Source: Hysterangium stoloniferum
Lineage: Eukaryota; Basidiomycota; Agaricomycetes; Hysterangiales; Hysterangiaceae
NCBI GenBank assembly: GCA_015178975.1
Contig: WHVD01000098.1
Span: forward strand, 1 to 64,000
Length of the DNA stretch: 64,000 bases
Direction of reading: 5' to 3'
In this document: positions 24,213 through 49,646 of the stretch, in pieces
Numbering within the stretch: position 1 is the first letter of the stretch
Layout: each line of letters starts with the position of its first letter
Program-made: the position numbers and the translations under genes
Notes under the pieces: model-generated
What the model saw: only the letters and a program-made list of their open reading frames with translations
Database searches by the model: none
Told to the model about the DNA's origin: nothing

Positions 24213-24224
24213 GTATATAAGGAG
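24213..24224 (+). promoter_or_regulatory. TATA-like box in L2 LTR
   Basis: GTATATAAGGAG, shared with the L1 LTR in the same relative orientation. It supports the LTR interpretation and gives L2 a sense strand. Confidence 0.5.
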
Positions 24225-26373: not shown

Positions 26374-26384
26374 GGTTATGGGCC
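26374..26384 (+). promoter_or_regulatory. Copia primer-binding site (half-tRNA type)
   Basis: GGTTATGGGCC directly abuts the 5' LTR. Its complement resembles the anticodon-loop region of initiator methionine tRNA, the internal tRNA site used by Drosophila copia and some fungal copia elements. The tRNA identity is inferred from memory of that motif. Confidence 0.55.
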
Positions 26385-26427
26385 TTTGTCCCTACTGAGA
26401 CACTTACCCAATTTTTTTTCTGCCGCC

Positions 26428-29400
26428 ATGTCTATGCCGGCCTCTACCCCGTCCATCCCTCTGTTGCGCACGTCTGTTGTTTATGCAGATACTAAGCTCG
26501 ATAAGGATTTGGGAAACTACTCTGAATGGTACCGCAGTGCTCGGCACTACCTCACGGTCACTGGCCTCATTTCCTATGCCCTTGGCACCGCCCCCTCCCC
26601 AGTATCTTCCGATCCTCTTGCTATGCAGAACTGGGCTGCAAATGATGGCCTCGCCCATGCCTTGATCCTCTCGACCCTGTCCAGGGCTGAGTGGGACTTC
26701 GCCGAGCCTATTCAGGGTGCGAAGCCCTGTTGGGACGCCCTTCTGCTTCGCCATCGGAACGAGGGGCCCATTCGCCAGGTGCAACTGATCCAGGAGGCCC
26801 TCACTCTCCAGTGTTCCAAGTCGATCTCTCTCTCTACTACCGCCTCTCAAATATGCCGTGCTATCTCCCGTGCATTCGAGATGGGCCAGCTCACTGAGGA
26901 CCTTTTTAAGTGCATTGCCTTATTGAACTCCCTTGGGGACTTTCCCCATTTACGCTCCTTGATCACACGAGACCTTTCTGAGTCCTCTGCATCTACCCCT
27001 TACACTTCCGCTCGCATTATCCTCCTGCTCGAAAATGAGCAGCGCCTTCTTGCATCTGATACCCAGCGTACTGCGCCTGTGGACGCCATCGCCCTTTCAA
27101 CACAATCCGCTTCCCCGAAACGTCCTGTTGTTACCTGTAACAACCCGAATTGCCGCAAACAGGGACACACAATTGCGTACTGTGTTTCAGCTGGGGGGGG
27201 GATGGCTGGCAAAAGCATTGAAGAAGGCAAAGCTGCCCGGCGCAGGGATCTGGAAGCTAAGAAATCCGGAAATTCTACACCTGCACCTGCAGGTAAGTTC
27301 CCCATCAGCATCACAGGTGCAAACGGTCAAGTCTTTACCGCATATATGGACACGCCCCTACCAAATGATGCAGCTTTCGCTGGTACCGTGATTGAAGAGC
27401 CTGCCATGGTGATGACGCCTTCTGATCAGGCTGAATATGCTGGATGGATAGCCACTAATGATAACCCACATGTCACCGTAAATTGGAACCTACATAGTTC
27501 TCCAGTGGGCACATCGGCGCTGGCCACATCAGTGCTGGCCACATCGGCCCCTCCCCTTCTCAGCTCACCTCCCGTTCCACACCCCTTCTGGCTTGATACA
27601 GGTGCCAGTATACATGTATCACCAGACCATACCGACTTTATCTCCTTACGCACCATATCCCCACGCCCTGTCACAGGTCTGGGGGGGTCATCGGTCATGG
27701 CTATCGGATTGGGTGATGTTCACCTTCGCATTGAGAATGGGACCCACATTATTCTCCGTGATGTTCTTTACATCCCTACTGCATCCGTTCGACTTATCTC
27801 TGTTAGGTGTATCACTAGAGATTCCAATGTGACTGCTCATTTCAGTCATTCCTCATGCTGGCTCACGAGTCCTTCTGGTGCAACCATTGCGCAAGGCTCA
27901 CTACTTCCCCACAGGAACTTATATTCCTTAACATTACAGTCTACTGCCTCTGACCAGGTTTTCTTCTCCCATGGTCACCCTGATCTTGCCATATGGCACC
28001 GTCGTTTGGGTCACGCGAATTATCAATCCATCCTGGATATGGTCAAAAATGGTCTCATCAAAGGTGTGCCACTCTCCACTCACCAGCATCCACCCAAGTG
28101 TGATTTTTGCATCCTCGGAAAGCAGACCAAAAATTCTGTACCCAAGGTGAGAGCACAGAGGGATGGGCATAAGGCTACAAGGCGCTTGGAAAAGGTCTGG
28201 GTGGATTTGGCAGGTCCTAATGATGTTGCATCCCGCACAGGATCATTATATATTATGAATATTATTGATGATTACTCACATTACCCCTGGTCAATCCCGC
28301 TAACCCATAAAAGTGATGCTTTTCCGGCGCTCCAGACCTGGGAACGTGCACGGGAGGTGGAGACCGGCCTGAAAGTCGGAGTGTACAGGACAGACAATGG
28401 CGAATTAAGAAGTAATCGAATGCAACAGTGGCTCGAGTCTCGTGGGACCCGGCACGAATACACAGCACCTTATACATCTGCGCATATAGGCCGTGTCGAG
28501 CGCATACACCGTACTTTAATGGGGAAGGCACGTACTATGCGTATATATGCTGGCTTACCTGCCCAATTTTGGGAGGAATTTTACCTTACTGCGACTCATG
28601 TACACGCAAAAACTACTACAGTTCAACTTCAGAAACGATCACCTTGGGAACTTTGGCATGGCCGGTCACCGGATGTCACTTATTTACGGGAGGCAGGGTG
28701 TCGGGCATTCGTCCTCATCCTCAGCAAACATAACCCCAAAGTATATGAGCGATCAATCGAATGTATTCTTCTAGGATACGAACCCAACATGAAGGCGTAT
28801 CGATGCTACGACCCAAAGATGAATTTGATTTATGTCTCTTACCACGTGCGATTCCTTGAAAGTCACGATGGCCACATTAGGCCAAGCCCAGGCTCTAATG
28901 GTACATTACCACCACCGCACATCCCATTGACTCATGATATGAACCCCTCACCACCCCCGTTGGATGACTCTGAGCCGATCATTCCTACACCTAGTACCTC
29001 CAATGTGCCACCAGTTCTCCCTACCCCAGGTACCGATTCGATACCCCCTGTCCCTCCTGTCCCAGCACTCCCTGTGCCCACTGATATTAACATCCGTCGG
29101 TCCAATCGCATAGCCACGCGCATTGCAGATCGCCCCTCCCGGGTAGCTACTGCTGTCCAGGCCTCCATTGACAGTGCAGCCCATGTGCGTGCACAGAAAG
29201 AACAGCGTCGCCTTGCTCTTCAGCAATTGCATGCAGACGTTGCTGACATTCCCGAGGACACAGAGGAGCCGGGGGGGCTGGCCGAGTCCCATGAGGACGT
29301 ATTAGCTGCGATCTCTAGTGGTTCAGTGCCCTATGAGATGGACCCACTTACCTGGGAGGAGGCCAGGGATTCACCTCATGGTGATGCTTGGCGTCTCAGC

Positions 29401-29637
29401 TACCAGGAGGAACTTGCATCTCTGAAAAGTATGGGAGTATACAGGTTAGTTCCACTGTCTGATGTCCCCTCGGGCACCAAGATCCATAAGGGCAAGCCCA
29501 TTTTTCATGTCAAACGGAATGCCCTAGGTGAGGTGACTCGGCGCAAGACTAGGCTGGTGTTTCGGGGGTACGAGCAGGTTCATGGCCGGGATTACACTAA
29601 AACGACCTCACCTACAGCTCGGATGGAGTCGTGGTGA
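26428..29637 (+). CDS. gag-pol: Copia Gag-protease-integrase and start of RT, up to nonsense codon
   Basis: The ATG at 26428 (GCCGCCATG context) is chosen over the upstream open stretch. Residues are counted from it. A Gag capsid region leads to a zinc knuckle of C-x4-C-x4-H-x4-C spacing (CNNPNCRKQGHTIAYC, about residue 242), protease WLDTGASIHVS (about 388) and the pre-integrase HRRLGH ... CDFCILGKQ. Integrase DDE residues are in DLAGP, RTDNGE and RVERIH. The acidic/proline-rich linker is followed by the RT start (EARDSPHGDAW, KTRLVFRGYEQ). TGA at 29635-29637 sits after ARMESW, where related elements have a basic residue. The frame goes on unchanged. Confidence 0.93.
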   Translation: MSMPASTPSIPLLRTSVVYADTKLDKDLGNYSEWYRSARHYLTVTGLISYALGTAPSPVSSDPLAMQNWAANDGLAHALILSTLSRAEWDFAEPIQGAKPCWDALLLRHRNEGPIRQVQLIQEALTLQCSKSISLSTTASQICRAISRAFEMGQLTEDLFKCIALLNSLGDFPHLRSLITRDLSESSASTPYTSARIILLLENEQRLLASDTQRTAPVDAIALSTQSASPKRPVVTCNNPNCRKQGHTIAYCVSAGGGMAGKSIEEGKAARRRDLEAKKSGNSTPAPAGKFPISITGANGQVFTAYMDTPLPNDAAFAGTVIEEPAMVMTPSDQAEYAGWIATNDNPHVTVNWNLHSSPVGTSALATSVLATSAPPLLSSPPVPHPFWLDTGASIHVSPDHTDFISLRTISPRPVTGLGGSSVMAIGLGDVHLRIENGTHIILRDVLYIPTASVRLISVRCITRDSNVTAHFSHSSCWLTSPSGATIAQGSLLPHRNLYSLTLQSTASDQVFFSHGHPDLAIWHRRLGHANYQSILDMVKNGLIKGVPLSTHQHPPKCDFCILGKQTKNSVPKVRAQRDGHKATRRLEKVWVDLAGPNDVASRTGSLYIMNIIDDYSHYPWSIPLTHKSDAFPALQTWERAREVETGLKVGVYRTDNGELRSNRMQQWLESRGTRHEYTAPYTSAHIGRVERIHRTLMGKARTMRIYAGLPAQFWEEFYLTATHVHAKTTTVQLQKRSPWELWHGRSPDVTYLREAGCRAFVLILSKHNPKVYERSIECILLGYEPNMKAYRCYDPKMNLIYVSYHVRFLESHDGHIRPSPGSNGTLPPPHIPLTHDMNPSPPPLDDSEPIIPTPSTSNVPPVLPTPGTDSIPPVPPVPALPVPTDINIRRSNRIATRIADRPSRVATAVQASIDSAAHVRAQKEQRRLALQQLHADVADIPEDTEEPGGLAESHEDVLAAISSGSVPYEMDPLTWEEARDSPHGDAWRLSYQEELASLKSMGVYRLVPLSDVPSGTKIHKGKPIFHVKRNALGEVTRRKTRLVFRGYEQVHGRDYTKTTSPTARMESW

Positions 29638-30915
29638 CTTCTCCTGCATATCGCAGCACATTTTGGTTGGGATGCACAACAGATTGATGTCAAGACCGCT
29701 TTCCTGTATGGCCTACTCCCTGACGATGAGACTCAATACATGTATCAACCAGCGGGCTTTGAAGAAGCAGGAAAGGAGTCTTGGGTTTGGCATCTTATCC
29801 GGGGTTTGTATGGCATGAAACAGGCTGGCCGCATCTGGAATCGGACCATGCATGACAAGATGGTGGAGTGGGGGTTCACACAATTGTCCAGTGAATCATG
29901 TATATATTACCGCCACACCTCGCAGGGCACAATAATCGCTGCTGTCCATGTGGATGACTTTTTGTCCATTGCATCCTCCCAGGCCGAGAATGAACGGTTC
30001 AAAGCACAGATGCGAGAAGCTTGGACCATTTCTGACCTCGGGGAAGTCAGTTTCGTCGTCGGTATTGCGGTTGAATGGGACCGGTCAAGTCACACCGTTA
30101 AACTCTCCCAGACTGCACTTATCGATCGGATTATTTCCCAGTTTGGCCAGTCTGACTCTTCTCCTCTCTCCATCCCCATGGTCCCTGGCCTGAAATTGCG
30201 GCGCGTCCTTCGATCTGCCCTTCCCCCAGATGATCAGGAGCACCTCTCTAAACTCCCATATCGCTCTCTCGTCGGGTCCCTCCTCTATTTAGCTATTTCC
30301 ACCCGGCCCGACATCTGTTATGCTGTCCAGCAACTCTCCCAGTACCTTGACTGCTACTCTTACGAACACTGGAATGCTGCCGTTCGGGTCATACGCTACC
30401 TCAAAGGCACTCGGACCATGCAACTCCACCTTGGGGGCCCTTCCCCCATACAGCTGGTGGGCCACAGTGATTCAGATTGGGCCAACTGCCTCGACACGCG
30501 TAGGAGTGTGGGGGGGTTTGCATTCTCCTTGGGCTCTGGCGTCGTGTCTTGGAATGCCCGAAAACAAAAAACAGTTGCTGCGTCTTCCTGCGAAGCCGAG
30601 TACATCGCAGCCTTCACTGCCGCAAAAGAAAATGCATGGTTGCGGTCAGTCTTTTCTGGTATTAACCTCCCTTTTAGGGACCCTACAGTAATCCATTGTG
30701 ACAATAACGCTGCCATTTGCCTCTCAGAGGATCCACTACTACACGATCGAGTCAAGCACATCGACATAAAATACCACTTTATTCGAGAATGTGTAGAGTC
30801 CGAAGCACTAAAACTCAAGTACATAAACACTAAGAACAACCTTGCTGACATATTCACTAAGGCACTAGAGAGCCCACAATTTGTGCGACTTCGAGGACTC
30901 CTAGGCCTACAATAG
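29638..30915 (+). CDS. pol: Copia RT and RNase H, downstream of the nonsense codon
   Basis: Same frame as 26428-29637 and open to the TAG at 30913-30915. It has the RT motifs QIDVKTAFLYG, YGMKQAGRIWN and VHVDDFLSI (the DD pair of the active site). The connection is LPYRSLVGSLLYLA and TRPDICYAV. RNase H is recognised by GHSDSDWANC, SSCEAEYIA and HCDNNAAICL, then HIDIKYHFIRE and the terminal NLADIFTKAL. All key residues are present, so only one codon separates this copy from a 1495-residue polyprotein. Confidence 0.93.
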   Translation, partial: LLLHIAAHFGWDAQQIDVKTAFLYGLLPDDETQYMYQPAGFEEAGKESWVWHLIRGLYGMKQAGRIWNRTMHDKMVEWGFTQLSSESCIYYRHTSQGTIIAAVHVDDFLSIASSQAENERFKAQMREAWTISDLGEVSFVVGIAVEWDRSSHTVKLSQTALIDRIISQFGQSDSSPLSIPMVPGLKLRRVLRSALPPDDQEHLSKLPYRSLVGSLLYLAISTRPDICYAVQQLSQYLDCYSYEHWNAAVRVIRYLKGTRTMQLHLGGPSPIQLVGHSDSDWANCLDTRRSVGGFAFSLGSGVVSWNARKQKTVAASSCEAEYIAAFTAAKENAWLRSVFSGINLPFRDPTVIHCDNNAAICLSEDPLLHDRVKHIDIKYHFIRECVESEALKLKYINTKNNLADIFTKALESPQFVRLRGLLGLQ

Positions 30916-30952
30916 GTATAGAATACAGGAGGAGTACTGCGGTGAGGAGGAG
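30916..30952 (+). promoter_or_regulatory. Copia polypurine tract
   Basis: The tract before the 3' LTR ends in GGTGAGGAGGAG, purine-rich except one base. Confidence 0.5.
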
Positions 30953-31313
30953 TGTTGAAGACAAAAGGCACCGCATATATGTGGCAGGGTCAACATATTT
31001 GGGGACTGTCTGAATAACAGTGATACCGGTGCGGTAACAACATGATCGGTCGTCACGATCAGGCTCCACTCATCCACACGTCTCACATATGAGCACATGG
31101 TCCTTTTATTTATGTAGAATATATAAAGGGATAACCTACATAGCTTAACCTCAGTCCGTTATACTTATACGAGACTGAGGTGAGCACAGAACAATCCTTT
31201 CTCTCTTAGTATATGCGCTTACTGTATACAATAGCTCTTCTTAGGTACACATTATATGAGTCCGTTATACTTATACGAGACTGAGCTCTTCTTAGGGACT
31301 ATATATTTTAACA
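30953..31313 (+). repeat. Copia 3' LTR
   Basis: 361 bp, matching 26013-26373 with two substitutions noticed. Confidence 0.95.
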
Positions 31314-31358
31314 ATTTCTTCGTATATAGAACGGTCAGAACTTCCGCCACTCTTCACA

Positions 31359-31926
31359 CTACCCAACCATGCCAAACTACACTCATCCATGGGATGTGAT
31401 TTTGGACAACTGTCTCATTAAAGAGCAGTTGGATTATGATGTTATAGATGAGCATGCCAGTGCCCAAGCTAATCTTGAAAAGTGTAATCCTGAACAACAA
31501 GCTGCTTTTGAGACTATCATGAAGGCAGTGGATGAGCAGCAAGAGGACAAATTGTTTTTTGTGAATAGTCCAGGTGGGACTGGCAAGTCCTTTGTATGGA
31601 ATACTTTGGCACATGCATGTCGTGCCAAGCGCTACATTGTGCTTTGTGTCACATCCTCTGGAATTGCATCAATGATTCTCAAGGGTGGACAGATATCTCA
31701 CAGCACATTTTCAATTCCTGTTCTCTGTGAGAAGGATGCTCTATGTCATATCAAAAAGGGTTCAGAAAAGGCAGAGCTTATGAAGCAAGTCCGGCTGATC
31801 ATTTGGGATGAAGTTCCAATGCAGTCATGTTTCACATGTGAAGCAGTTGACAGAACTCTAAGGGATTTATTAGACAAGGAGGCTCTTCCCTTTGGAGGGA
31901 TTCCTGTTGCCTGGGGAGGTGACTTC
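31359..31926 (+). pseudogene. Helitron Rep-helicase copy 1, part 3: helicase motifs I-II
   Basis: Open frame in phase 31369-31926. NPEQQAAFETIMKAVDE leads to Walker A (GGTGKSF, about 31573-31593), then LCVTSSGIASMIL and Walker B (LIIWDEVPM, about 31795-31821), then DRTLRDLL and the GGDF end. These are PIF1-like superfamily 1 helicase motifs, which unwind DNA in Helitron transposition. The solo LTR at 31927 splits GGDF from QQTLPVV, and the frame joins cleanly. Confidence 0.92.
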
Positions 31927-32470
31927 TGTTATGACCCGTTCCCAGATGTTTCAATATCCGACTTCCGATCTCTGACTATGGAACATCATAGTTACTGTAT
32001 CTTCCACATTCTTCCCTTGTTCCGCATTTGGTAACTTGTCCGTTGACAAGTATTCACTCGTTTGTTTATTATATTCCCGTTTCGGAATATTGTCTCCGTG
32101 ATATGTCTTATTGTATTTCCATTTTAAGAATACTTCCGTTTCCATCTTATTATGGTCTTAGTTTGTAGTACAATAACGAGAAGACTTATATTAGTTTCCA
32201 CGAATTTGTACTTTACCTTAGATCTGATATCAACTTAGTTTCTTATTCCTCCTCCCGTCTTTCTGTACACTCGATATTCGGAACTCTTCGGAACTCTGAA
32301 TATCCATATCTTCCATCGTAAATCTCACTTCTGAAATTAAGGACTTCGAGTGTTTGTGTAGAGGCGCAGCACATAAGCTGAAGCCAACGTCCTGACCCTA
32401 TTGAATAGTTTCCAACTCTCCGGTGACTTCCTGATAGTTCCGGAATAAGTTCCCGACACGGCACTTAACA
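31927..32470 (+). mobile_element. Solo LTR, 544 bp, related to the element C LTR
   Basis: TGTTATGACCCG to GCACTTAACA with TSD ACTTC (31922-31926, 32471-32475). It shares the block GCGCAGCACATAAGCTGAAG (near 32366) with the element C LTR (near 60619), at a similar distance from the end. Otherwise the two differ strongly. Strand is inferred from that shared block. Confidence 0.92.
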
Positions 32471-33414
32471 ACTTCCAGCAGACTTTGCCTGTTGTACCAA
32501 AGGGTTCAAAAGAACAGATCATTGGACAATGTATCCAAAAATCTGAACTGTGGAAGCATATCAAGGTACTATTCTTGAAAAAGAATATGTGGGTGAACCA
32601 GGATGATCCAGAGAGTCAACAGTTTGCTCAGTGGCTCTTGGATGTAGGCCATGGAAAGGATTTGCCTTTGGATCATACAATGGATATCCCTCCTCATATG
32701 GTCTGTGGTTCAGAAATGTCTGATCTAATTGGTGAGATATATCCAAACATTCATGTGGATAGAGACCAAAGAGATTGGCAAGATGAAGACTTCTTAGACT
32801 GGGCAATTCTGTGTCCAAGGAATTCAGAGGTGGATGAAATAAATTCAGAACTTCTGAATAAATTCCCTGGGGAGAGCCGTGTGTACCACAGTGCTAATAC
32901 TGCAGAGGGAGACAGTGAAACAGAGATGTATCCTGTAGAGTATTTGAATAGCCTGAATTTTGGTGGAATCCCACCAAGTCGACTTGAGGTGAAGCTAGGA
33001 GTACCTTTGATGCTACTACAGAACATAGATCCACAGAGAGGGCTTTTTAATGGGACACGATTGCGATTGGTGAAAATGGAGAATAATTTGCTTCAAGTGC
33101 GGATCCTAACTGGACCATGTCCTGGGAAACTGGCGTTTCTTTCACGGGTGAAAGTAATTACAAATGATGATCAACTGCCATTTAAACTGCATCGTACACA
33201 GTTTCCAGTGCAGTTAGCATTTGCAATGACAATTAACAAGTCACAGGGACAGTCTTTGAAAGTGGTGGGAATAGATTTGAGACTGGCAGTGTTTGGACAT
33301 GGGCAATTGTATGTAGGACTTTCAATGGGAAGAAGTTGGAATAGGGTAAAAATATTATTAAAGGAAAGTCAGAGAACAGCAAATATAGTGTACAAAGATG
33401 TATTATTAGATTGA
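32471..33414 (+). pseudogene. Helitron Rep-helicase copy 1, part 4: C-terminal helicase
   Basis: QQTLPVVPKGSKEQIIGQ to the TGA at 33412-33414. Motifs typical of the PIF1-like C-terminal half are present: DWAILCPRNSEVDEIN, the LMLLQNIDPQRGLFNGTRL motif IV/V region, MTINKSQGQSL and GQLYVGLSMGRS (motif VI region). It is complete at the C-terminus and about 170 residues longer there than copy 2. Confidence 0.92.
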
Positions 33415-33840: not shown

Positions 33841-34380
33841 ACTGCTTGGTTTCACAATCTGCCTCCTCTCTTTCCTCCCATGCATGTATCCTTTCCTTCT
33901 TTCTCTGTCTTCCTCTGACTGGCCTCCTCTCTCTTTCCTCTAATGTTTGCGTGTGTCACGAATCAAATTTTACTCAATAAAGTTGAATAAACAATTGAAG
34001 AATATTCAACAATATTGAATAAAGATGCCTCATTCGACGAAGTATTAATTTGTCCTGTTGATAAAGCATGAGGCAAAGATAGGACACAGAGGCTCACAAA
34101 TAAATAAGTCAAAGAAAGACTCAGAAAAAGTTCAATGATTATATAATACAGTAAATAATATAATATAGTACAGGTTTTCTGACTGACTTCCTTCGTTCCT
34201 ATCATCATCCTTATATACTATATATCATTTACCTATGATGATAATATGATATAAAAGTGAAATCATCAATGACATCAACCTGAGACAAGTCGAAGATATT
34301 GTCAAAGAATAGTTGAATCGGAAGTTGAGTTGGAAAGTCGAAGGAAAGTCGAAGAAATATTAAATTGAATATTATCAAAA
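33841..34380. other. Non-coding stretch with 1.5 units of the ~66-bp pyrimidine repeat
   Basis: 33860-33955 is pyrimidine-rich (CCTCCTCTCTTTCCTC) and matches, in complement, the unit of the big array at 42130-44790. The rest (33960-34380) is AT-rich with no supported gene. Confidence 0.55.
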
Positions 34381-37474: not shown

Positions 37475-37477
37475 ACA

Positions 37478-37955
37478 CACTGGAGACACCCCAAGATTTT
37501 TGGAGTTGGAAAACCTTCAGAAAATCTTGCTATTTGGCCAAATTTTCTAAGCATTTTTTGAACACAAAAACTGTTTGAAAATTTTGAGTATTAGCAAGTT
37601 TTTCTGAGGCCAAAAATTGTATGTGAAAATCCTAAAAATCTGCATCAGGAAATTGTAAGGAAACATTGTTTGAAATAGCCTATTTTTTATGGATTTATGA
37701 ATGAGAAAACTCTTAAAAAACCCTGTATTTTGTTAGGGTTTTTCCACCCAACATAATCCTATGAAAACTGTAATAATGTGCCTAGAGAAATTAATTAAAA
37801 ACTACATATTTCTACTCAATTTTGCCCCTCAGGGAATTGAGTGAAAACTGTGATTTCCTGTCTGAAAAAATCTTGTGAGAAGACAAAGTTTTCTTAAAGT
37901 TTTGTCAAGGGGAAAACCATAATGAAATTTAAAATTTAATGATGTAAGTTTTTGC
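37478..37955 (+). repeat. Left terminal inverted repeat
   Basis: About 478 bp, complementary to 49188-49643 with scattered substitutions and small indels. Both contain, for example, CAAGATTTTTGGAGTTGG near the tip and TTAATTAAAAACTACATA inside. Confidence 0.9.
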
Positions 37956-38460
37956 GACACTTTGTGACTTTGTGTGACACTTTGCGACACTTTGCGACTT
38001 TTTGTGACACTTTGCGACTTTGTGTGACACTTTGCGACTTTGTGTGACACTTTGCGACTTTGTGTGACACTTTGCGACTTTGTGTGACACTTTGCGACTT
38101 TGTGTGACACTTTGCGACTTTGTGTGACACTTTGCGACTTTTGGTGACACTTTGCAACTTTGTGTGACACTTTGCGACTTTGTGTGACACTTTGCGACTT
38201 TGTGTGACACTTTGCGACTTTTTGCAACACTACGCGTGACACTTTGCGACACTGCGCGACTTTTTGCGACACTTTGCGACTTTGTGTGACACTTTGTGAC
38301 ATGTTGTGACACCCTGACACTGCACAACACTTTGCAACTTTGTGTGACACTGTGCGACACTTTGCGACTTTGTGTGACACTGTGCGACTTTTTGCGACTT
38401 GGTGTCACACTAGTGTCACACCAAGTCGCAAAGTGTCGCAAAAAGTCGCAAAGTATCACA
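37956..38460. repeat. Left subterminal 20-bp repeat array
   Basis: About 22 units of TGTGTGACACTTTGCGACTT, very uniform at 38000-38220. The array ends in an imperfect palindrome (about 38391-38428) after which the units run in the opposite orientation. Apparent long frames with SQSVTQSRKV repeats come from the 20-bp period and are not treated as genes. Confidence 0.9.
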
Positions 38461-40235
38461 AAGTTTCCGCTTCCGCTTCCTCTCCCCACCCGCTAACACT
38501 CCCCCTCTTCTCACTCGCACCCGCCGAGCTGAGTCCGATCCCGAGCTGCGGTGTCCCCAGGCCCATGGTCAGCGTGCCCCCGCCACTGCCCGCATTGCTA
38601 TTCCGCCCACTGTTCCTGCCGCCTCCACCCGGACCACCCACGCCGCCACCAGACGCACCCCGCGGGATGCCAGACAGATAGTCCAGCCACGACCCGCCGT
38701 CTTCTCAGCGAGGCATTGTACGGGCTCCAGTCTTGCCCTGGTCCACCACCGCTGCCGCCGCCGCCACCACCACCTGACCCCCCTCCTGCAGACCCGGGCT
38801 GTACACCCGGCCCACCGCCACCACCATGCACAGGCCAGGCCATCTCCAGCACACCAGCCCGCGCGCCAGCACTCTGCCCCGCACCTCCAGCGGCACTACC
38901 CCCCGCGCTCGCTGTGCCCGCCGCCAGGAGCGACGCAAATGGATTGTGGCTGTGGTGGTACGCGTTCTGGGGGTGGTGCACATGCGTGTGCTGCGGCGGC
39001 ACGGGGAAGAGATGCGGTTTGTACGGCACGTGGACGTGCAGCTGGGCGTGCGGGTATCCGGTTGCGTAGCCTCCTCCCCCTCCTCCCCCTCCTCCCCTCC
39101 TCCCCCTCCCCCTCCTCCACCACCGCCGCCACCAGGGCCCCCTGCCGACACGGGTGTCGACGCAGTGCTGTGTCTTCTGAAGCTCTGTCCGCCGCCGCCT
39201 CCGCCGCCTGTCCCCGGCCCTCCCCCTGCTGCGCCGGGGTTGTTATACCCCCCCGGGGACGTTGTCCCGCCCGGGGCCTACTACTCCAGCAGCCACCACT
39301 ACGCAGATGCCGTGCCCGCGCTGAACGGACCCGCCATCTACGAGGACCCTGACAACCACTTCCCCCCCGCCACGACATGGCACCCCGCCTTCCCGCCCTC
39401 CGCGAAGCTCGAGAGCCCCACCTTCCCCAAGCTGGGGCACACGCACGGCGGCCACAGCCCGCACGGCCATGGACAGGGGCACGGGCCACACGGTGGCAGC
39501 GGCGGTGGCGGTGGCGGACACGGACACGGGCACGGGCAGTGGGGGTGGCAGCGGCGGAGAGGGGAGGGCGGCGCGCCGGGGTTTGGGAGGCTGACGGCGC
39601 CGGTTTTCCCCCAGGGCCCTGGGGGCTCGCCGACCATGTCGAGCTCGAGCACCACCACGACGAGCTGGAGTGGTGCGGCGGGGGGCGGATCGGGGGCGGG
39701 GCCGGGCTGTTTCTCGCACGCACGCGGGGAGGCGTACGACTCCCACCACACGTCGTATACCGGCTCACATCACCTGTACACGTCGACGACGCGCCAGTCG
39801 TACCAGCACCTGTCGGGCCTGGGGACCACGCTTGCGCTGTCCCCCACAAATGTGCAGCATGGCAGTCTGTGGAGCAGTATGCGGACGATGAAAATGGAGA
39901 TATGAATGGGATCGTTTCACCATCGTCTCCTCTGGCCAGCTCCCTTTTGTTATTTCTCCCCCCACTTCTATTCCTGTCCTCTCTACCTACACTTCGACTT
40001 CGATTCCCCTTTTCTTGCTCACCATATTATATCGCATCATCATGCCCACACCACCTCTCCCCGCCTTGTCACCCCGCCCCGGCCAGCGCTGCGCCAGCTT
40101 TCAAGATTTGTCCAAGTAAAAGTATATTCTACCTAATATGTCCAATGTCTCGTTTATATCCTGTGCCTGATGATACTGGTATTGATACTCAACTACCTGT
40201 ACCTATAGACCCACCCCAGCCTGCCTTGTCGCAAA
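38461..40235 (+). pseudogene. Captured GC-rich host gene fragment, left copy (chimeric)
   Basis: Very GC-rich. On the plus strand 39260-39905 encodes a histidine/glycine-rich tail: YYSSSHHYADAVPALNGPA, HGHGQGHGPHGG, and the end YDSHHTSYTGSHH ... SLWSSMRTMKMEI, stop at 39903-39905. The right copy (45940-47470, minus strand) encodes the same tail, which confirms the frame. 38598-39029 reads instead on the minus strand (KPHLFPVPPQHTHVHHPQ), so a second piece of the gene is joined in inverted orientation near 39130. 39906-40235 matches the right copy too, as a probable 3' UTR. No intact protein is expected. Confidence 0.65.
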
Positions 40236-40360
40236 ATGCTTTGTGACTTTGTGTGACACAATTTCCGACTTTGTGGGATGTCACAAAAAGTGTCACAAAG
40301 TCGTAGTCGCAAATTGTCGCAAATTGTCACACAAAGTCACAAAGTGTCACAAAAAGTATT
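40225..40360. repeat. Short patch of the 20-bp repeat
   Basis: Several units of GTCGCAAA/TGTCACAAAG in mixed orientation flank the captured segment, as on the right arm. Confidence 0.8.
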
Positions 40361-40539
40361 ATGAATCAAAACCCTATTACATTATACCTATTATATCTTG
40401 ACTGAGTTGGTACTTTAAGTGTATTTACAAGGCTGTGACCCGTGGGGGGCAAGCCCCCACCATGCTACCACCCCACAACTTTACTCGGTCACTGCGTGAC
40501 CTGGTGGGTCAATTATTTATGACCATGTCATATTGAGGA

Positions 40540-42130
40540 CTTCTACATTCCAGCTTCTCATTTATTCTCATTCAGAGACTTAGTTTTAAAGTGCTTAGAT
40601 TTTAAATTATATGCATTATATACTTTTGTAAATTCACTGAACCTAAAAAACATAAGTCAGTCTCTTTTTGGAACCTTGGCTGAATACTTACTCATGGATC
40701 AATAATAACATCCTTAAGCACTATATGTATATTTGGCTTGGAATAGCATTTTCATTCTTCCTCAATTTTTTTCTCTTGAAGTGTCAGGTGTTTTGTTCCA
40801 CATTGGACTTCCAACTTCCCATATGGCTGTGATTGTCCTTCCCATGTCATATTAGGGACTTCTGCAGATTCTAGCTCCCCATTTATTCTCCTCCCATACT
40901 CATACCCCACTTTCCTTCCATTCCACTCATCCATCTGTCATTGAATCGTTTAGTATAAATTATTGTCTTGTATTCTACTTATCACATTGTTCAGACCCCT
41001 ATGTGTATTTTCAACCTACATATACTGTCCTCTAGCATGGTGATACTCAGCAACACACCCACTTAATGCTTTCCTTTTCCAGCCACTCTATCTCAGTTCT
41101 GTTCTAATGACATTCTATTATTCCTTGCATCACTTCACCATATTATTTGCCATCTCAGAATATTCATCTTTTTTTTGTTGTCTTGTATTCCTCTTCTTAA
41201 TATCCAGTTCTGTTTCCCAAATTCCTTTGTTCTGTGAATATTGAATCTCCACTTTCAGCTCTGTGCTTCCATTTATTTTAGTATACATAAAACCCCATGA
41301 TGTACACTACTATCCTTCAGTTTGAATATTAACTTACATAAAATACTCATGTAGAATCCCACTCTCATCTTTAGAGGTGTATGCAATAATACCTTCATTT
41401 ACTTTTAAGTGCTGTTCATACTGCTTAATCCTTTTGCTAGTGTCTGCCAGACTGAGACTTATGACCCTTTTTGACCTTAGCCTCTGAACCCCCATTTACA
41501 GCTACATTTTTAGAATCTCCCTCTCATGTTTAAAAGCTGATGGAATAATACCTTCAAAGTATTGTTCATACTGCTTAATCCTTTTGCTGGTGTCTGGCCA
41601 GACTGAGACTTACTCCCTTTGCAAGCTTAGCCATGGAGCCCAATTTATAACTACAGTAAGTGTCATTATATGTACTTCCTGGTACATACTTTGTTGCCTG
41701 TTTTGAAGTACTGGAGCATCTGACAGTTTTGTGCAGGGTGGAACATGCTGTATGTTGAAGTCTAAGCTCCACTTCTCTTTAGTAACTGGATTTTTTCCCA
41801 TTTTGTCCCACTCTTAACACTTCCCTCTAATACATATATCCACTTTGGGAAAACCTTTTGTAATTATGGAGAATTGAGCAATTCCACAGTTTGCTTGCAT
41901 TTGGTCAGTTGATACTTCATTTTTGATTTTGAAGTGATTGGTTTTTGAATTGGTTGCAATTATTTGCTTTGATTGGAAATTTCCCTTTTTATTTTGACTT
42001 AATGTATTTTATTTTGATTTTTCTGATTTCCTTTTATTTTGAAGCATTTTATTGTCATTTAATATTGTCATTTAATTTTGATTTATTCTATTCTATTCTA
42101 TTCTATTCTATTTTATTTTGATTCGAAAAA
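40540..42130. other. AT-rich non-coding stretch with a ~120-bp direct repeat
   Basis: No gene supported. 41387-41508 and 41536-41656 are homologous (shared CATACTGCTTAATCCTTTTG and CAGACTGAGACTTA). A short TCTAT run lies at about 42088-42112. Confidence 0.6.
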
Positions 42131-44790
42131 GGTGTGGGAGCAAGCTAGAGAGAGAAGGAACAGGAAAAGAGGCTGATCAGAGTGGGACAGAGTGAGAAGG
42201 AAAGGGCACACGCACCTCCTGGAGGAAAGAGAGAGGGGGCCGGTCAGAGGAGGGAGAGACAGAAACGGTACACGCACTGGCTGGAGGAAAGAGAGAGTGG
42301 ATCAGAGGAGGACGGAGAGAGAAGGAAAGGGGACATGTACCACCTGGAGGAAAGAGAGAGGAAGCCAATGAGAGCAGGACAGAGAGAGAAGGAAAGGGGA
42401 CACACACTGGCTGGAAGAAAGAGAGAGGAGGACAGTCAGAGGAGGACAAAGAGAGAAGGAAAGGGTAGTACACTCACCTCCGGGAGGAAAGAGAGAGGAG
42501 GCTGGTCAGAGGAGGACAGAGAGGAGGATGAAGAGAGAAGGAAATGGTAAGTACACTGGCTGAAAGAAAGAGAGGAGGCTGGTCAGAGGAGGATGGAGAG
42601 AGAAGGATAGGGTACACGCACCATCTAGAGGAAAGAAAGAGAGGCTGCTCAGAGGAGACTGAAGAGAGAAGGAATGGGGACACGCACCCGCTGGAGGAAA
42701 GAGAGAGGAAGATGAAGAGAGAAGGTAAGGAGAGAAGGTAAGGGTGGACGCACTGGCTGGAGGAAAGAGATAGGGCCGATGAGAACAGGATGGTGGGAGC
42801 CAGCAAAGGATACACACACCGGCTGGAGGAAAGAGAGAGGGCCGATCAGAGGAGGATGAAGAGGGAAGGGAAGGGTAGATGCACCGGAGGAGGATAGAGA
42901 GAGCAGGAAAGGGAACGCGCACCACCTGGAGGAAAGATGAGAGGATCAGAGGAGGACGGAGGAAGAAAGAAACGGTACACACACTACCTGGAGGAAAGAG
43001 AGGGCCAATCAGAGGAGGACGGAGATAGAAGGAAAGGGAATGCTCACCGGCTGGAGGAAAGAGAAGAGGCCAGTCAAATGGTAGACACACCTCTTGGAGG
43101 AAAGAGAGAGGGGGACGAAGGGAGAGGGAAAGGGTACACGCACCGGCTGGAGGAAAGAGAGAGGGGCGAAGAGAGAAGGAGCAGTACACGCACCGGCTAG
43201 AGGAAAGAGGGGAGGCTGATCAGAGGACAAAGAGACAACACCCGCGCACCCCCACAACGGTAGACGCAGTGGCTGGATGAAAGAGAGAGGGGCCCAATGA
43301 GGGCAAGACAAAGAAAGAAGGAAAGGGTATACGCACCATCTGGAGGAAAGACAGAGGGGCGAAGAGAGAAGGAATGGGGACACAAATCCTGGAGGAAAGA
43401 GAGGAAGTCGATCAAAGGAGGACGAAGAGAGAAGGAAAGGGGACACGCACCAACTGAAGGGGCCGATCAGAGCAGGGTGCATGCCCAATCGGGCACAGCA
43501 CACTGGGAACAGGTGCGGCGCGTGCGTGCATTCGCAAACGCAACACACACCCAATAAGGCACAGCGTGTTGTGAACAGGCGCGGCACATGCAGGCATCGG
43601 CAAACGCAACGCGCTGTGCCCGTTTGTGCTCGAGTGGGTGTGCGCGCGTTGGCAAATGACGCGGCATGCCCGTTTGTGCCCGAGTTGGCAGGCAGGCATG
43701 TGCCTGTGGATGGGAGTGGGTGCGCCGTGGATGAGAGTGGGTGCACCGTGCCTGTTCACGCTTGCATGCAAAGCGCTGTGCCCATTTGGCCCGAGTGGGT
43801 GTGCGCACTGTTGAGGAAGCCGATCAGAGGAGGAAGAAGAGAGAAGGACAGGGTACATGCACCTCCTGGAGGAAAGACTGAGGAAGCTGATTAGAGGAGG
43901 ACGGAGAGAGAAGGAAACGGTACACGCACCGGCTGGAGGAAAGAGAGGAGGACACTCGGAGGACGAAGAGAGAAAGAAAGGGGACACGCAAAACCTGGAG
44001 GAAAGAGAGGAGCATGATCAGAGGAGGACAAAAAAAGAGGAAATGATACACGCACCGGCTGGATGAAAGAGAAGAGGTCAATCAGAGGAGGATGGAGAGA
44101 GAAGGAAACGGTACATGCACTGGCTACAGGAAAGAGAAGAGGAGGGCGAAGAGAGAAGGAAACAGTACATGCAGTGGCTGGAGGAAAGAGAGAGAGGACG
44201 GTCAGAGGACGGAGACAGAAGAAAGGGTACACGCACCGCCTGAAGAAAAGAGAGAGGAGGATGATCAGAGGATGAAAAGAGAAGGAAACGGTACACACAC
44301 CAACTGGAGGAAAGAGAATGGAGGCCAATCAGAGAGGGACGAACAGAGTAGGAGACGGTACACGCACCGGCTGCAGAAAAGAGAGAGGAGGACGAAGAGA
44401 GAAAGACAGTGTACATGCACCTCCTGGAGAGAAAAGAGAGGATGATCAGAGGAGGACGAAGAGAGAAGGAAACGGTACACGCACCGACTGGAGGAAAGCT
44501 AGGAGGCCAATCAGAGGAGGACGAAGAGAGAAGGAAACAGTACACGCACCGACTGGAGGAAAGAGAGAGGAGGCTGATCAGAGGAGGACGAATAGAGAAT
44601 GAAAGGGTACACGCACTCGCTGGAGGAAAGAAAGAGGAGGACGAATAGAGAAGGAAATGGTACATGCACCGACTGCAGGAAAGAGAGAGGAGGATGATAA
44701 GAAGAGGACAAAGAGAGAAGGAAACGGTACACACCCGGATGGAGAGAGCAGGACGCACAAAGAGAGGAGCAAGATTGAGAAACAACTGGT
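42130..44790. repeat. ~66-bp purine-rich minisatellite, about 2.7 kb
   Basis: Roughly 38 units, each with GGAGGAAAGAGAGAGGAGG, a GATCAGAGGAGGAC part and GAGAAGGAAACGGTACACGC. One strand is almost entirely purine. The array is interrupted at about 43455-43815 by a different GTGCGC-rich block. Frames on the minus strand rich in Ser/Leu/Pro/Phe follow from the composition. A 1.5-unit seed is present at 33860-33955 in the Helitron flank. Confidence 0.88.
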
Positions 44791-44819
44791 GACAGGCACA
44801 ACATCTATGACCATAACAC

Positions 44820-45010
44820 CGTGGGAAGGCTAAGGCTCGCTTCGCTCGCAGGTGACCGTGGGAACCTATGCTGCTCGCTTCGCTCGCAGATCAGACCGTG
44901 GGAAACTGAGGCTCGCTTCGCTCGCGGTGCTTCTATTTTATGACTCAGCAATGACGCCCACGGACCCACCGACGCGAATTAACTTATATGATGATGATGA
45001 TATGTCTCTG
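44820..45010 (-). other. Helitron-terminal module with TCGCTTCGCTCGC boxes
   Basis: Three copies of GCTCGCTTCGCTCGC, each near CCGTGGGAA, then CCCACGGACCCACCGACGCG and TTAACTTATATGATGATG. It is the complement of 33632-33830 and more CpG-intact than that copy. Confidence 0.65.
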
Positions 45011-45084
45011 GACGATACCCATAAATCACATGCTTCTCACTGACTCCCAATTGTATTACATCTTAGAGCGCGTAAGCCCTCATT

Positions 45085-45830
45085 TCACAACAAAAAGTCG
45101 CAAAGTGTAACACAAAGTCGCAAAGTGTCGCAAAAAGTCGCAAAGTGTCACACAAAGTCACAAAGTGTCGCAAAAAGTCGTGCAGTGTCGCAAAGTGTCA
45201 CACAAAGTCACAAAGTGTTGCAAAAGTCGCAAAGTGTCACAAAGTCGCAAAGTGCCACAAAAAGTCGCGTAGTGTTGCAAAGTGTCACAAAGTCGTGTAG
45301 TGTCGCAAAAACTCGCAGAGTGTCACACAAAGTCGCAAAGTGTCACACAAAGTCGCAAAGTGTCGCAAAAAGTTGCAAAGTGTCACACAAAGTCACAAAG
45401 TGTCACAAAAAGTCTTGCAGTGTCGCAAAAAGTCCAACTTTTTGCGACTCTTTTGACTTTTTGCGACTCTTTTGGACTTTTTGCGACTCTTTTAGACTCT
45501 TTGTGACTCTTTTAGACTCTTTGTGACTGTTATAGACTCTTTATGACTGTTATAGACTCTTTGTGACACATGTAGACTCTTTGCGACTTTTTGTGACTCG
45601 TTTAGATTCTTTGCGACTCTTTGCGACTTTTTTAGACTCTTTGCGACTTACTCTTTGTAACTCTTTGAAAAGTTGCAAAGTTGCAAAGTGTCACATAAAG
45701 TCACAAAGTCGCACAAAGTCACAAAGTGTCGCACAAAGTCGCAAAGTATTGCAAAGTATCGCAAAAAGTCGTGTTGCAAAAAGTCGCAAAAGTGTCACAA
45801 ATCATAGCAGTGTCTTCACACAATAATAAT
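45085..45830. repeat. Internal 20-bp repeat array, right arm
   Basis: Units of GTCGCAAAGTGTCACACAAA to about 45435. Then comes an inverted, derived form (TTTTGACTTTTTGCGACTC, TAGACTCTTTGTGACT) to about 45660, then the first orientation again. Confidence 0.88.
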
Positions 45831-45939
45831 CTATGTAAAAAGCCTCCAAAATTTCTATTATCCTCTTTTCTCTATGACCACAAACAATGATACACTATAC
45901 ACACAGCACATGGACAAAGGGAGGAAAAAAACACATCAC
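45831..45939. other. AT-rich spacer
   Basis: No feature seen between the repeat array and the captured fragment. Confidence 0.5.
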
Positions 45940-47470
45940 TATCAATTATATACATAATCTATGTTAAGAAGAAGCCACAGCAAACCTGATATACAGTAGG
46001 AGGTACACATCGCATGTGAATTTGAAGCTGGGGGATGATGGCATGGAACAAGAAAATAAGGCTTGGGGCAGGCAGTATCCAAGATGGCGGCAGCGGCAGG
46101 GGGCAGGCTGGGGTGATGGTGGGTAGGTACAGGTAGTTGAGTATCGATACCAGTATCATCAGGCGCAGGATATAAACGAGACATTGGTTATATTAAGTAG
46201 AATATACTTTTTACTTGAATAAATCTTGAAAGCTGGCGCAGTGCTGGCCAGGGCGGGGTGACAAGGCGGGGAGAGGTGGTGTGGGCGTGATGGTGTGATA
46301 TAATATGCTGAGCAAGAAAAAGGGAATCCAACTCCAAGTCTAGCTGGAGAGGATAGCAATAGAAGTGGGGGGGGGGGGATAACCAAAGGGAGCCGGCCAG
46401 AGGAGACGATGGCGAAACGTGATCACTCATCCATCCTATTCATATCTCCGTTTTCATCGTCCGCATACTGCTCCACAGACTGCCATGGTGCACATTTGCG
46501 GGGGACAGCGCAAGCGTGGTCCCCAGGCCCGACGGGTGCTGGTACGACTGGCGCGTCGTCGACGTGTGCGGGTGATGCGAGCCAGTATACGACGTGTGGT
46601 GCGAGTCGCACGCCTCCCCGCGAGAAATGGCCCGGCCCCACCTCCGCGCCGGATCCGCCCCCCGCCGCACTGTTCGAGCTGGTCGTGGTGGTGCTCGGCG
46701 AGCCCCCAGAGCCCTGCGGGAAAAACGGCGCCGTCAGCGTCCCAAGCCCCAGCGTGCCGCCCCCACCCCCTCCGCCGCTGCCGCCGCTACTCGCGTTCCC
46801 CGCACCACTGCCGCTCCCGCTGAGGCTGCCGTATCCGCTCCCGCCGTTCCCCGCGGCGCCGCTACCAAGCCCAGGCGGGAAGCCCCCAAAGTCCGCGCTC
46901 GAGCCGGTCTCGTCGGACCAGTTCTGCGCGTGGTACGGGGGTGCGCGCCGCCGTGCGCGATCGCGTGCAGCGGCGCGGGGTGCAGCGTGTCGTAGGGCCC
47001 GTTCCCGTGTCCGTGTCCATCACCGCCGCCGCCGCCGTGCGGCCCGTGCCAGTGCCCATGTCCCTGTCCATGGTCGTGCGGCCCATACCCGTGTCCTTGC
47101 GGCCCGTGGGGCCGGTGGCCGCCGTGCGTGTGCCCCAGCTTGGGGAAGGCGGGGTGCCATGTCGCGGCGGGGGGGAAGTGGTCGTCGGGGTGTGGACGGC
47201 GGGTCCGTTCAGCGCGGGCACGGCATCAGCGTAGTGGCTGCTGCTGGAGTAGTAGGCCGTGGCGAGCCCGTAGGGGAGGCGGTAGGGTGCGCCGTCGACG
47301 GGGGAGACGCTGCGGTACTCATCGGCGGGGAAGTCGTGCGGCGAGATGAAGGTGTCGTAGGGCGAGGCATCGGTGCGGCGCGTCTTGGGGCGGGGGCGGT
47401 AGATGTATCGGGGTACTTGGAGTGGAAGTTTTCCTTCAACTTTTTTGGCTTGGTCGAGCTGCTTGCGACA
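45940..47470 (-). pseudogene. Captured host gene fragment, right copy: end of an HMG-box and C-terminal tail
   Basis: On the minus strand, from 47470, one frame gives KPKKLKENFHSKYPD and the next gives YIYRPRPKTRR, separated by a 1-base loss near 47418. Together this is the third helix and basic tail of a fungal HMG-box DNA-binding domain. The tail continues SPYDTFISPHDF, YYSSSSHYADAVPALNGPA and a His/Gly-rich region, and ends YDSHHTSYTGSHH ... SMRTMKTEI near 46440. Frame changes show that it is decayed. 46160-46400 matches the left copy's 3' flank. The donor was probably an HMG-box transcription factor. The rest of the box is absent. Confidence 0.65.
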
Positions 47471-47940
47471 CTTTGCAACTTTGTGACACTGTGCTACTGT
47501 TTGCGACACTTTGCGACGTTGTGTGACACTCTGCGACTTTGTGTGACACTCTGCAACACACTGTCACAAAGTCACAAAGTGTCACACAAAGTCGCAGAGT
47601 GTCACAAAAAGTCGCACAAAAAGTCGCACAAAGTCGCAGAGTCACAAAAAGTCGCACAAAGTCGCAAAGTGTCACACAAAGTCGCAAAGTGTCACAAAAA
47701 GTCGCAATGTCCCACAAAGTCACAAAATGTCAAACAAAGTTGCAAAAGTCGCAAAATGTCACAGTGTCGCAAAGTGTCACACAAAGTCGCAAAGTACAAA
47801 AAGTTGCAAAGTCCCACACAGTCACAAAATGTCACACAAAGTCACAGAGTCGCAAAATGTCGCAAAATGTCACAGAGTTCAAAAAGTCACAGAGTCACAC
47901 AAAGTCTCAAAGTGTTACAATGAGTCGCAAAAATTCGTGT
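47471..47940. repeat. 20-bp repeat array between captured fragment and spacer
   Basis: GTCGCAAAGTGTCACACAAA units, with the opposite orientation at 47470-47570. Confidence 0.88.
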
Positions 47941-48375
47941 TGACTATCTCAGACTGACAATTAAAGAGAGCTGCGTGGTTGGGTAGGGGGAGTGTGTTAG
48001 CTCTCCACGTGTGCGTGGGAAGACTCGCCGCTCGGGAGGGCAGGCATTCATGATGCATTTACAGCTCTCGTTTTGTGCAACCCGAAACTATGACAAAATA
48101 ATATGCACAGAGGAAGCAACAATGTTGTCGTACAGGGAGAAAAGGCGTGAGAGTCCTATATACACTCAGCTGGACATTGAGTGCCAAACTAATCCTGGCA
48201 GGTTAGGGATTGTGTGGCACTCGACACTAAAACCCCAGTATCACAAGTGATAGTTCCCCAGTCAAAAAACTGGCGAAAAATTTCTACTGTGAAAGCTGGC
48301 TCTCTGAGATGGACTCTGATGAACATGGGGAGCTAGAGTACTCCACTGGCAGGTATGATTTTAGTCATACTGACA
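47941..48375. other. Unique spacer in the right arm
   Basis: Not repetitive within the window. It has a 79-codon frame at 48011-48250 and further on a short coding-like stretch (MDSDEHGELEYSTGRYD around 48309-48359), which may be a transposon or gene remnant. No family was recognised. Confidence 0.35.
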
Positions 48376-49187
48376 CTATTGCACATTTGCAACTTTTTGC
48401 GACTTTTTGCGACTGCGACTTTGTGACATTTTGTGGGACTTTGCGACTTTTTGTACTTTGTGACTTTGTGTGACACTGCGACTTTTTGTGACACTTTGAG
48501 ACTTTGTGTGACACTTTGCGACTTTTTGTGACTTTTTGCGACGTTTTGCGACTTTGCGACTTTGTGACATTTTGTACTTTGCGACATTTTGTACTTTGCG
48601 ACTTTGTGTGACACTGCGACTTTGTGCGACTTTTTGTGACACTGCGACTTTGTGCGACTTTTTGTGACACTTTGAGACTTTGTGTGACACTTTGCGACTT
48701 TGTGCGACTTTTTGTGACACTTTGAGACTTTGTGTGACACTTTGCGACTTTGTGCGACTTTTTGTGACACTCTGCGACTTTGTGTGACACTTTGCGACTT
48801 TGTGCGACTTTTTGTGACACTCTGCGACTTTGTGTGACACTTTGTGACTTTGTGACTTGACCCAGTGTGTTGCAAAAGTGTCACACAAAGTCACAGAGTG
48901 TCACACAACATCGCAAAGTCGCAAAAAGTCGCAAAAAGTCGCAAAGTGTCACGTCACACAAAGTCACAAAGTGTCGCAAAAAGTCTTGCAGTGTCGCAAA
49001 AAGTTGTGCAGTGTCGCAAAGTGTCACACAAAGTCGCAAAGTGTCACACAAAGTCGCAAAGTGTCACACAAAGTCGCAAAGTGTCACACAAAGTCGCAAA
49101 GTGTCACAAAGTCGCAAAGTGTCACAAAGTCGCAAAGTGTCACAAAAAGTCATTGCAAAAAGTCTCAAAGTGTCACAAAACCTCACA
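48376..49187. repeat. Right subterminal 20-bp repeat array
   Basis: TTTGCGACTTTGTGTGACAC units to about 48855, then the complement (GTCGCAAAGTGTCACACAAA) to 49180. The orientation switches near 48860. Confidence 0.9.
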
Positions 49188-49643
49188 TCATTAAATTTTA
49201 AATTTCATTATGGTTTTTCCCTTGACAAAACTTTAAGAAAACTTTGTCTTCTCACAAGATTTTTTCAGACAGGAAATCACAGTTTTCACTCAATTCCCTG
49301 AGGGGCAAAATTGAGTAGAAATATGTAGTTTTTAATTAATTTCTCTAGGCACATTATTACAGTTTTCATAGGATTATGTTGGGTGGAAAAACCCTAACAA
49401 AATACAGGGTTTTTTAAGATTTTTCTCATTCATAAAATCCATAAAAAATAGGCTATTTCTAACAATGTTTCCTTACAATTTCCTGATGCAGATTTTTAGG
49501 ATTTTCAGATACAATTTTTGGCCCTTCTAATACTCAAAATTTTCAAACAGTTTTTGTGTTCAAAAAATGCTTAGAAAATTTGGCCAAATAGCAAGATTTT
49601 CTGAAGGTTTTCCAACTCCAAAAATCTTGGGATGCCTCCAGTG
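49188..49643 (-). repeat. Right terminal inverted repeat
   Basis: About 456 bp, the complement of 37478-37955. It ends CCTCCAGTG|ACA. Confidence 0.9.
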
Positions 49644-49646
49644 ACA

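What the first reader, a model, noticed from the sequence alone, without database searches (positions are those of the whole stretch)
37478..49643. Giant non-autonomous CACTA-like transposon with ~460-bp inverted repeats
Inward CACTGGAG ends, a 3-bp ACA duplication, and a clean empty site supplied by Helitron copy 1 define a 12,166-bp unit. The subterminal arrays fit CACTA biology. The very long inverted repeats, the near-mirror order of the arms (repeat, GC-rich gene piece, repeat) and the absence of a transposase do not fit a standard element. This is the best candidate here for an undescribed element type.
Basis: partly seen in the sequence, partly recalled or inferred. Interest (0 to 1): 0.88.

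Follow-up and report, generated by a model that had tools for sequence, protein, structure and literature searches.

The report
Fungal CACTA-like transposon with mirrored arms
A 12-kb piece of jumping DNA in a mycorrhizal fungus belongs to a large, recently spread family in which no moving enzyme was found and which carries copies of a gene fragment, some of them mirrored; the kind is known, but the very long mirrored ends are unusual.

Summary
Window 37478-49643 is one inserted unit: CACTGGAG/CTCCAGTG ends, 466-bp inverted repeats (98% over aligned bases), ACA on both sides, and an unoccupied counterpart of the insertion site in the window's other Helitron copy. It is not unique. The genome (very probably Hysterangium stoloniferum) holds 363 exact copies of the 15-base end; among 320 listed ones there are 95 convergent neighbouring pairs, mostly of 364-377 bp (31) or 3-8 kb (47). 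Nine of ten complete pairs read have matching 3-bp duplications. Ends, duplication length and subterminal 10/20-bp arrays resemble CACTA (EnSpm), but no known transposase match lies inside a listed pair, so the mobiliser is unidentified. There are two subfamilies (TIRs 98-99.6% alike within, 89-90.5% between). The window copy is a patchwork: A-type ends and gene piece, a B-type arm in opposite orientation, and a 4.6-kb unrelated insert, which explains its near-mirror order. One B element (L026, 6.4 kb) is a mirror image along its whole length; in another (C246), 351 of 351 bases compared between arms are identical. The GC-rich piece belongs to a predicted fungal gene and shows no sign of selection in the recent copies tested. 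A new variant of a known kind.

The parts
37475..37477 (.). left copy of the 3-bp target duplication (ACA)
37478..37943 (+). left terminal inverted repeat, subfamily A
   Evidence: 99.6% to the right TIR of C546 (L009), 98.2% to its own right TIR
37953..38411 (+). subterminal array of 10/20-bp units (TTTGYGAC forward)
38480..40250 (+). GC-rich gene piece, A type; 3' end towards the centre
   Evidence: 92-96% to five other A elements; 67% over 69 aa to predicted protein P0001
40290..40357 (-). short array (GTCRCAAA)
40429..45000 (.). about 4.6-kb insert absent from L011, which reads straight through the junction; holds a GA-rich minisatellite (about 67-bp unit) at 42169-44732; no Pfam match above a cut-off in its long frames
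45090..45434 (-). array, A type, resumes after the insert
45437..47735 (-). B-type arm: array, GC-rich gene piece (46102-46800 and 47007-47257, minus strand), D1 array; matches the left half of palindromic element L026
   Evidence: 89.5% to L026 over 2.3 kb; 57% over 108 aa to P0001
47565..49175 (.). three further arrays: reverse (47565-47931, overlapping the end of the B-type arm), forward (48386-48854), reverse (48880-49175)
49178..49643 (-). right terminal inverted repeat, subfamily A
49644..49646 (.). right copy of the 3-bp target duplication (ACA)
32471..32908 (-). unoccupied counterpart of the insertion site in Helitron copy 1

Best explanation
The unit is a non-autonomous cut-and-paste DNA transposon of a CACTA (EnSpm)-like family. 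Shown: shared CACTGGAG ends, 466-bp TIRs, 3-bp target duplications, an empty site, two subfamilies with TIRs about equally alike within and between elements (as after a recent burst), and no sign of selection on the carried gene piece in the recent copies tested. Inferred: a CACTA-type transposase supplied from elsewhere binds the ends and the TTTGYGAC subterminal units, excises the element and inserts it at a staggered 3-bp cut. Inferred: the long mirror arms arise because arrays and arms let the element fold or switch template during gap repair, copying one arm onto the other; the window copy shows another outcome, a patchwork in which an A-type element took up a B-type arm, probably by exchange within the shared arrays, and a separate 4.6-kb insert.
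For: TSD match in 9 of 10 complete end pairs read. 363 ends, reversed control 0. 95 of 118 neighbouring ends within 20 kb are convergent, for 320 of 363 ends. Empty site. Both TIRs of an element belong to the same subfamily in 9 of 9. Array motif forward near the left end and reverse near the right end in L009-L013, less cleanly in L014, L026 and the window copy. L026 is self-complementary along its whole length. Substitutions among L014 and the two arms of L026 are even over codon positions: 7/6/7, 8/6/6, 3/2/3. CACTG ends and 3-bp TSDs are given for plant CACTA in a review (passages), CAC..GTG and 3-bp TSDs for fungal EnSpm (passages), subterminal 10-20-bp units in both orientations and a 3-bp TSD for plant CACTA (passages).
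Against: No transposase was found in any of the 95 pairs: 180 match rows of Plavaka, KDZ and Transposase_21, all outside; the one Transposase_21 locus read (8.5 kb, L047) has neither these ends nor the arrays. TIRs are about ten times longer than usual for CACTA. One of ten complete pairs read (L045+L046, with retroelement-like frames inside) has different 3-bp flanks, TTT and CTA. 13 of 20 loci fetched show only one complete end, and in 7 of those 13 no array was found. One paper passage gives 5-nt TSDs for rice and maize CACTA, against the 3 bp of the other sources. The fold-back and exchange steps rest on anatomy alone.
Confidence: 0.83

Rival explanations
1. The family is mobilised by a transposase outside CACTA (Plavaka, KDZ, Harbinger, P/Galileo, or an undescribed one).
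For: Plavaka and KDZ matches are common in this genome (68 and 71 match rows), Transposase_21 is rarer (12 rows; 29 with a protein query), and none sits between listed ends.
Against: Reported termini and TSDs differ: Plavaka TGT..ACA with 2 bp or CATCA..TGATG with 2-3 bp; Kyakuja 7 bp without TIRs; Zisupton 8 bp; Galileo 7-8 bp. TSD sequences vary (ACA, ATA, TGG, TAA, CTA twice, TTT, ATG, TCA), unlike the mostly TTA/TAA of PIF elements. Harbinger, P and other transposases were not searched for in this genome.
Confidence: 0.2
2. The gene piece is a working gene of the element (an accessory or unrecognised transposition protein), and the mirror elements carry two copies for a reason.
For: Three predicted proteins of the species contain parts of the gene. 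67 of 85 match rows have no internal stop, though GC-rich sequence has few stops by chance. A 5' exon is found on six contigs. Six of six other pairs with both orientations have the same divergent order.
Against: No Pfam domain. Substitutions even over codon positions among L014 and the arms of L026. The window copy's right piece is split over two frames. Only 15 of 95 pairs hold a listed piece. Relatives found only in this species.
Confidence: 0.12
3. The 12-kb unit is an assembly join of separate elements.
For: It is a patchwork of A and B sequence, and long near-identical palindromes are hard to assemble (general knowledge).
Against: Matching ACA at both outer ends and an empty site. Both TIRs are A type. 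The A blocks and the B arm recur in other contigs in the same local order.
Confidence: 0.07

Closest known systems
CACTA (EnSpm) DNA transposons, non-autonomous
   Same: CACTG..CAGTG ends, 3-bp TSD, subterminal arrays of 10-20-bp units in both orientations (passages)
   Different: TIR 466 bp instead of mostly under 50; a whole-element palindrome; no transposase found for the family
Fungal EnSpm (Kojima 2025, PMC12730594; abstract and passages seen)
   Same: CAC..GTG ends and 3-bp TSDs; Basidiomycota
   Different: those encode a transposase and some a TET/JBP gene; no transposase was found here, and TET/JBP genes were not searched for
Galileo / Foldback-like elements (PMC4168063; passages seen)
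   Same: long TIRs of variable length, internal and foreign sequence taken up into both TIRs, tandem repeats in arms, two subfamilies, a 9-kb copy with TIRs over 4 kb
   Different: P superfamily, 7-8-bp TSD; here 3 bp and CACTG ends
Pack-CACTA (PMC8903248; passages seen)
   Same: CACTA-like non-autonomous elements carrying gene fragments
   Different: described there in plants; parent gene not identified here; fragment often present twice in mirror orientation
MITEs (general knowledge)
   Same: 31 pairs of 364-377 bp with the same ends; the one read (374 bp, L012) is fold-back-like (136 of 187 bases, ungapped) with CTA on both sides
   Different: they share ends with kilobase elements carrying gene pieces

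Membership tests
CACTA/EnSpm | ends CACTA/CACTG..TAGTG/CAGTG | tested here: met
   definition
CACTA/EnSpm | 3-bp target duplication | tested here: met
   9 of 10 complete pairs; 3 bp, but 5 nt
CACTA/EnSpm | subterminal repeats of 10-20 bp, direct and inverted | tested here: met
   8 of 8 complete elements examined, units; absent in 7 of 13 single-end loci
CACTA/EnSpm | short TIR (typical, not strictly defining) | tested here: not met
   466 bp
CACTA/EnSpm | EnSpm-type transposase in the element or an autonomous relative | tested here: not met
   absent from the unit; no match row inside any of the 95 listed pairs (320 of 363 ends listed); hence called CACTA-like, not filed as a member
CACTA/EnSpm | mobilised by a CACTA transposase | not testable with these tools
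   needs an assay
Plavaka | TGT..ACA with 2-bp TSD or CATCA..TGATG with 2-3-bp TSD | tested here: not met
KDZ | 7- or 8-bp TSD (as reported for Kyakuja and Zisupton) | tested here: not met
   3-bp TSDs
PIF/Harbinger | 3-bp TSD, mostly TTA/TAA | tested here: not met
   1 of 9 matching TSDs is TAA
Galileo (P superfamily) | 7-8-bp TSD and P-type transposase | tested here: not met
   3-bp TSD; the transposase part was not searched
Pack-TYPE | fragment of a host coding gene between TIRs | tested here: inconclusive
   piece matches predicted proteins, but the best match (C172) lies on a contig with ends of this family and itself has an inverted partner copy; no parent outside the family identified

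The most novel reading that the evidence does not exclude
A CACTA-like family whose members are repeatedly rebuilt into whole-element palindromes: one arm, gene piece included, is copied onto the other in separate events, giving a natural series from single-arm elements through patchworks to perfect mirrors and short fold-back MITEs. In C246 the two arms are identical over the 351 bases compared, while the two arms of its closest relative read, L026, differ from it by 1.1% and 2.3%.
Probability: 0.3. Interest if true: 0.6.

Novelty: new variant of a known kind. Interest (0 to 1): 0.42.

Why it matters
How fold-back elements and MITEs form from larger transposons is, to my knowledge, not settled. 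One genome with single-arm, patchwork, mirrored and miniature forms sharing the same ends would allow the steps to be ordered. It also suggests gene-piece carriage by CACTA-like elements in a mycorrhizal basidiomycete, and it warns that gene predictions such as P0001 and P0003 contain or overlap transposon sequence.

Tried and rejected
Transposase inside the unit: 11 of 11 stop-free frames of 200 aa or more, nothing above a Pfam cut-off. Plavaka, KDZ and Transposase_21 as partner: 180 match rows. I merged them by hand to 113 places (66 on contigs with a listed end, none inside a convergent pair; nearest a weak Plavaka fragment 4.1 kb outside an end that points away from it). The 67 rows left out in merging, a few of them not direct neighbours of a kept row, were checked afterwards: 29 on contigs without a listed end, the others 10.7 kb or more from one. 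43 of 363 ends were not listed, so a partner near one of those is not excluded. The Transposase_21 locus L047 has no such ends or arrays. Centre of the C172 locus (3 kb, L048): Gypsy gag-like frames and short frames resembling the gene's first exon, judged by eye; no Pfam search of it was made. The 13 single-end loci: frames inspected by eye only; they look like retroelements, other repeats or host genes. Codon-position test A against B: some third-position excess (9/7/15, 7/3/13), too few changes to claim selection before capture; rows with L045+L046 mix frames and were not used. CACTGGAG strings in Plavaka and KDZ loci lie within the loci and were not followed up. The search on Academ gave nothing used.
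Full report
WHAT IS THERE. The unit runs from 37478 to 49643 with ACA on both sides. Its terminal inverted repeats match over 466-478 bp (96% with gaps; 98.2% over aligned bases). With the flanks joined and one ACA kept, the sequence aligns through the junction (92%, 438 bp) to Helitron copy 1 at 32471-32908. Nineteen of those bases are right of the junction; copy 1 then has about 545 bases that the right flank lacks, and the alignment resumes at 89% over 573 bp. The unit therefore inserted into a Helitron copy and duplicated 3 bp.

THE FAMILY. The window is G000:C553:1-64000 of a 111-Mb, 554-contig assembly. A 478-bp end query gave 42 rows, with 40 of 507 candidates scored. The 15-base end CACTGGAGRCAYCCY occurs 363 times, its reversed control 0 times. 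Listings are capped at 100; five pattern searches and the window's left end give 320 of the 363. Among neighbouring ends within 20 kb, 95 are convergent, 10 divergent, 4 and 9 in the two same-strand orders. The 95 convergent pairs have these sizes: one of 141 bp, 31 of 364-377 bp, 9 of 0.87-2.8 kb, 47 of 3-8 kb, 4 of 8-13 kb (the window unit among them) and 3 of 13.9-16.0 kb. Only ten complete pairs were read; nine have identical 3-bp flanks. The tenth (16.0 kb, L045+L046) has long retroelement-like frames inside (by eye) and different flanks. Of 20 loci fetched around ends, 7 hold a complete pair and 13 only one complete end within about 9 kb inward.

ORGANISM. The gene piece matches a predicted protein, 'hypothetical protein BU17DRAFT_102166 [Hysterangium stoloniferum]'. 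That protein maps to contig C172 at 99% over residues 124-309, and C172 is 89,491 bp long, the contig length listed for that record. The genome is thus very probably that of this ectomycorrhizal basidiomycete (passages of PMC7550596).

ANATOMY. TIRs fall into two groups: A (window unit, L009-L013) and B (L014, L026, L045+L046). They are 98.0-99.6% alike within a group and 89.0-90.5% between, and both ends of an element agree in 9 of 9. In 9 of 9 elements at least one TIR has a match in another element as close as or closer than its own partner, as expected after a recent burst. Next to the TIRs lie arrays of 10/20-bp units: TTTGYGAC forward near the left end and reverse near the right end in L009-L013, more mixed in L014, L026 and the window unit. 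The unit has 126 motifs against a mean of 0.6 and maximum of 4 in 200 block shuffles. In 7 of the 13 single-end loci no such array was found.

PATCHWORK. The window unit's left arm follows A elements to about 40428. L011 reads GTGTATTTATATGTCTC where the window has a 4.6-kb insert ending near 45000. From 45437 to 47735 it follows the left half of B element L026 at 89.5%. Its two gene pieces therefore point towards each other (plus, then minus), while six of six other listed pairs with both orientations have minus, then plus.

PALINDROMES. L026 (6,409 bp, TCA duplicated) is self-complementary along its whole length: 93.6-93.7% over 779-5361 and 94.2% over the outer 1.03 kb. In C246, 351 bases of one arm equal those of the other exactly; L026's two arms differ from them by 1.1% and 2.3% and the window by 3.7%. 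No more of C246 was read, and equal arms could also be an assembly effect. Of the eight complete elements compared, only L026 is fully palindromic; the inverted-repeat fraction of the other seven is 0.28-0.58, arrays included.

GENE PIECE. 75 DNA match rows (40 of 71 candidates scored) and 85 protein match rows (87 of 87 candidates scored, 67 rows without internal stop). In a database of 5.8 billion proteins, relatives were found only in H. stoloniferum: one protein from the window piece (only 8000 candidates scored) and three, itself included, from P0001 (400 candidates). No Pfam domain. A 5' exon is found on C172, C388, C79, C268, C1 and C527. Among L014 and the two arms of L026 the changes are spread evenly over codon positions (7/6/7, 8/6/6, 3/2/3), so there the piece behaves as a passenger; the numbers are small. 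I merged the 85 rows by hand to 64 places; 23 of them fall in 15 of the 95 pairs, the other 41 outside listed pairs.

MOBILISER. None was identified. Plavaka gave 68 rows, KDZ 71, Transposase_21 12, and a 468-aa Transposase_21 frame used as query 29. None lies inside a listed pair. Other transposase families were not searched for. By ends and TSD length, fungal EnSpm fits, and Plavaka and KDZ do not.

NOT IN PRINT, AS FAR AS SEARCHED. Searches on Plavaka, KDZ, Academ, Hysterangium with transposable elements, CACTA with long TIRs, Pack-CACTA, CACTG, fold-back/MITE origin, and EnSpm in basidiomycetes listed no paper that, by title and start of abstract, describes this family; some searches listed only part of their hits (15 of 1,400, 15 of 29, 12 of 24). 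Passages were seen of seven papers, and the abstract and outline of one. The library is open-access only, and Repbase was not available.

Confidence in the best explanation was lowered from 0.85 to 0.83 because the 13 single-end loci and the 5-nt TSD statement had been left out.

Noticed in passing
L012:1370-5996: A 374-bp fold-back member and a 4,250-bp member sit side by side sharing one CTA: CTA-mini-CTA-element-CTA.
   Followed up: partly
42169-44732 and 33861-33954: GA-rich minisatellite (about 67-bp unit) inside the insert; a related short stretch lies on the other strand near 33.9 kb.
   Followed up: no
L020 and L021 (C334 and C146): Two element ends share the same 10 flanking bases and 98% identity over the next 1.8 kb, which suggests a duplicated segment rather than two insertions.
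   Followed up: no
L047:3143-4546: A 468-aa stop-free Transposase_21 frame, apparently an EnSpm-type transposase; no inverted repeats found in the 8.5 kb read.
   Followed up: partly
L048 and proteins P0002, P0003: P0003 joins a start resembling a frame in L048 (gag-like by eye) to this family's gene piece, and P0002 shares mainly the first exon of P0001: likely gene-prediction fusions or exon shuffling.
   Followed up: partly
21798-33414: Helitron copy 1 appears interrupted by a Copia element (frames 26356-30915).
   Followed up: no
31926-32470: About 545 bases of Helitron copy 1 are missing from the copy that holds the unit, 19 bp from the insertion site; intron, insertion or deletion not decided.
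   Followed up: no
genome, 341 of the 363 ends: The base just outside the end is A in 175 of 341 counted ends, a possible target preference.
   Followed up: no
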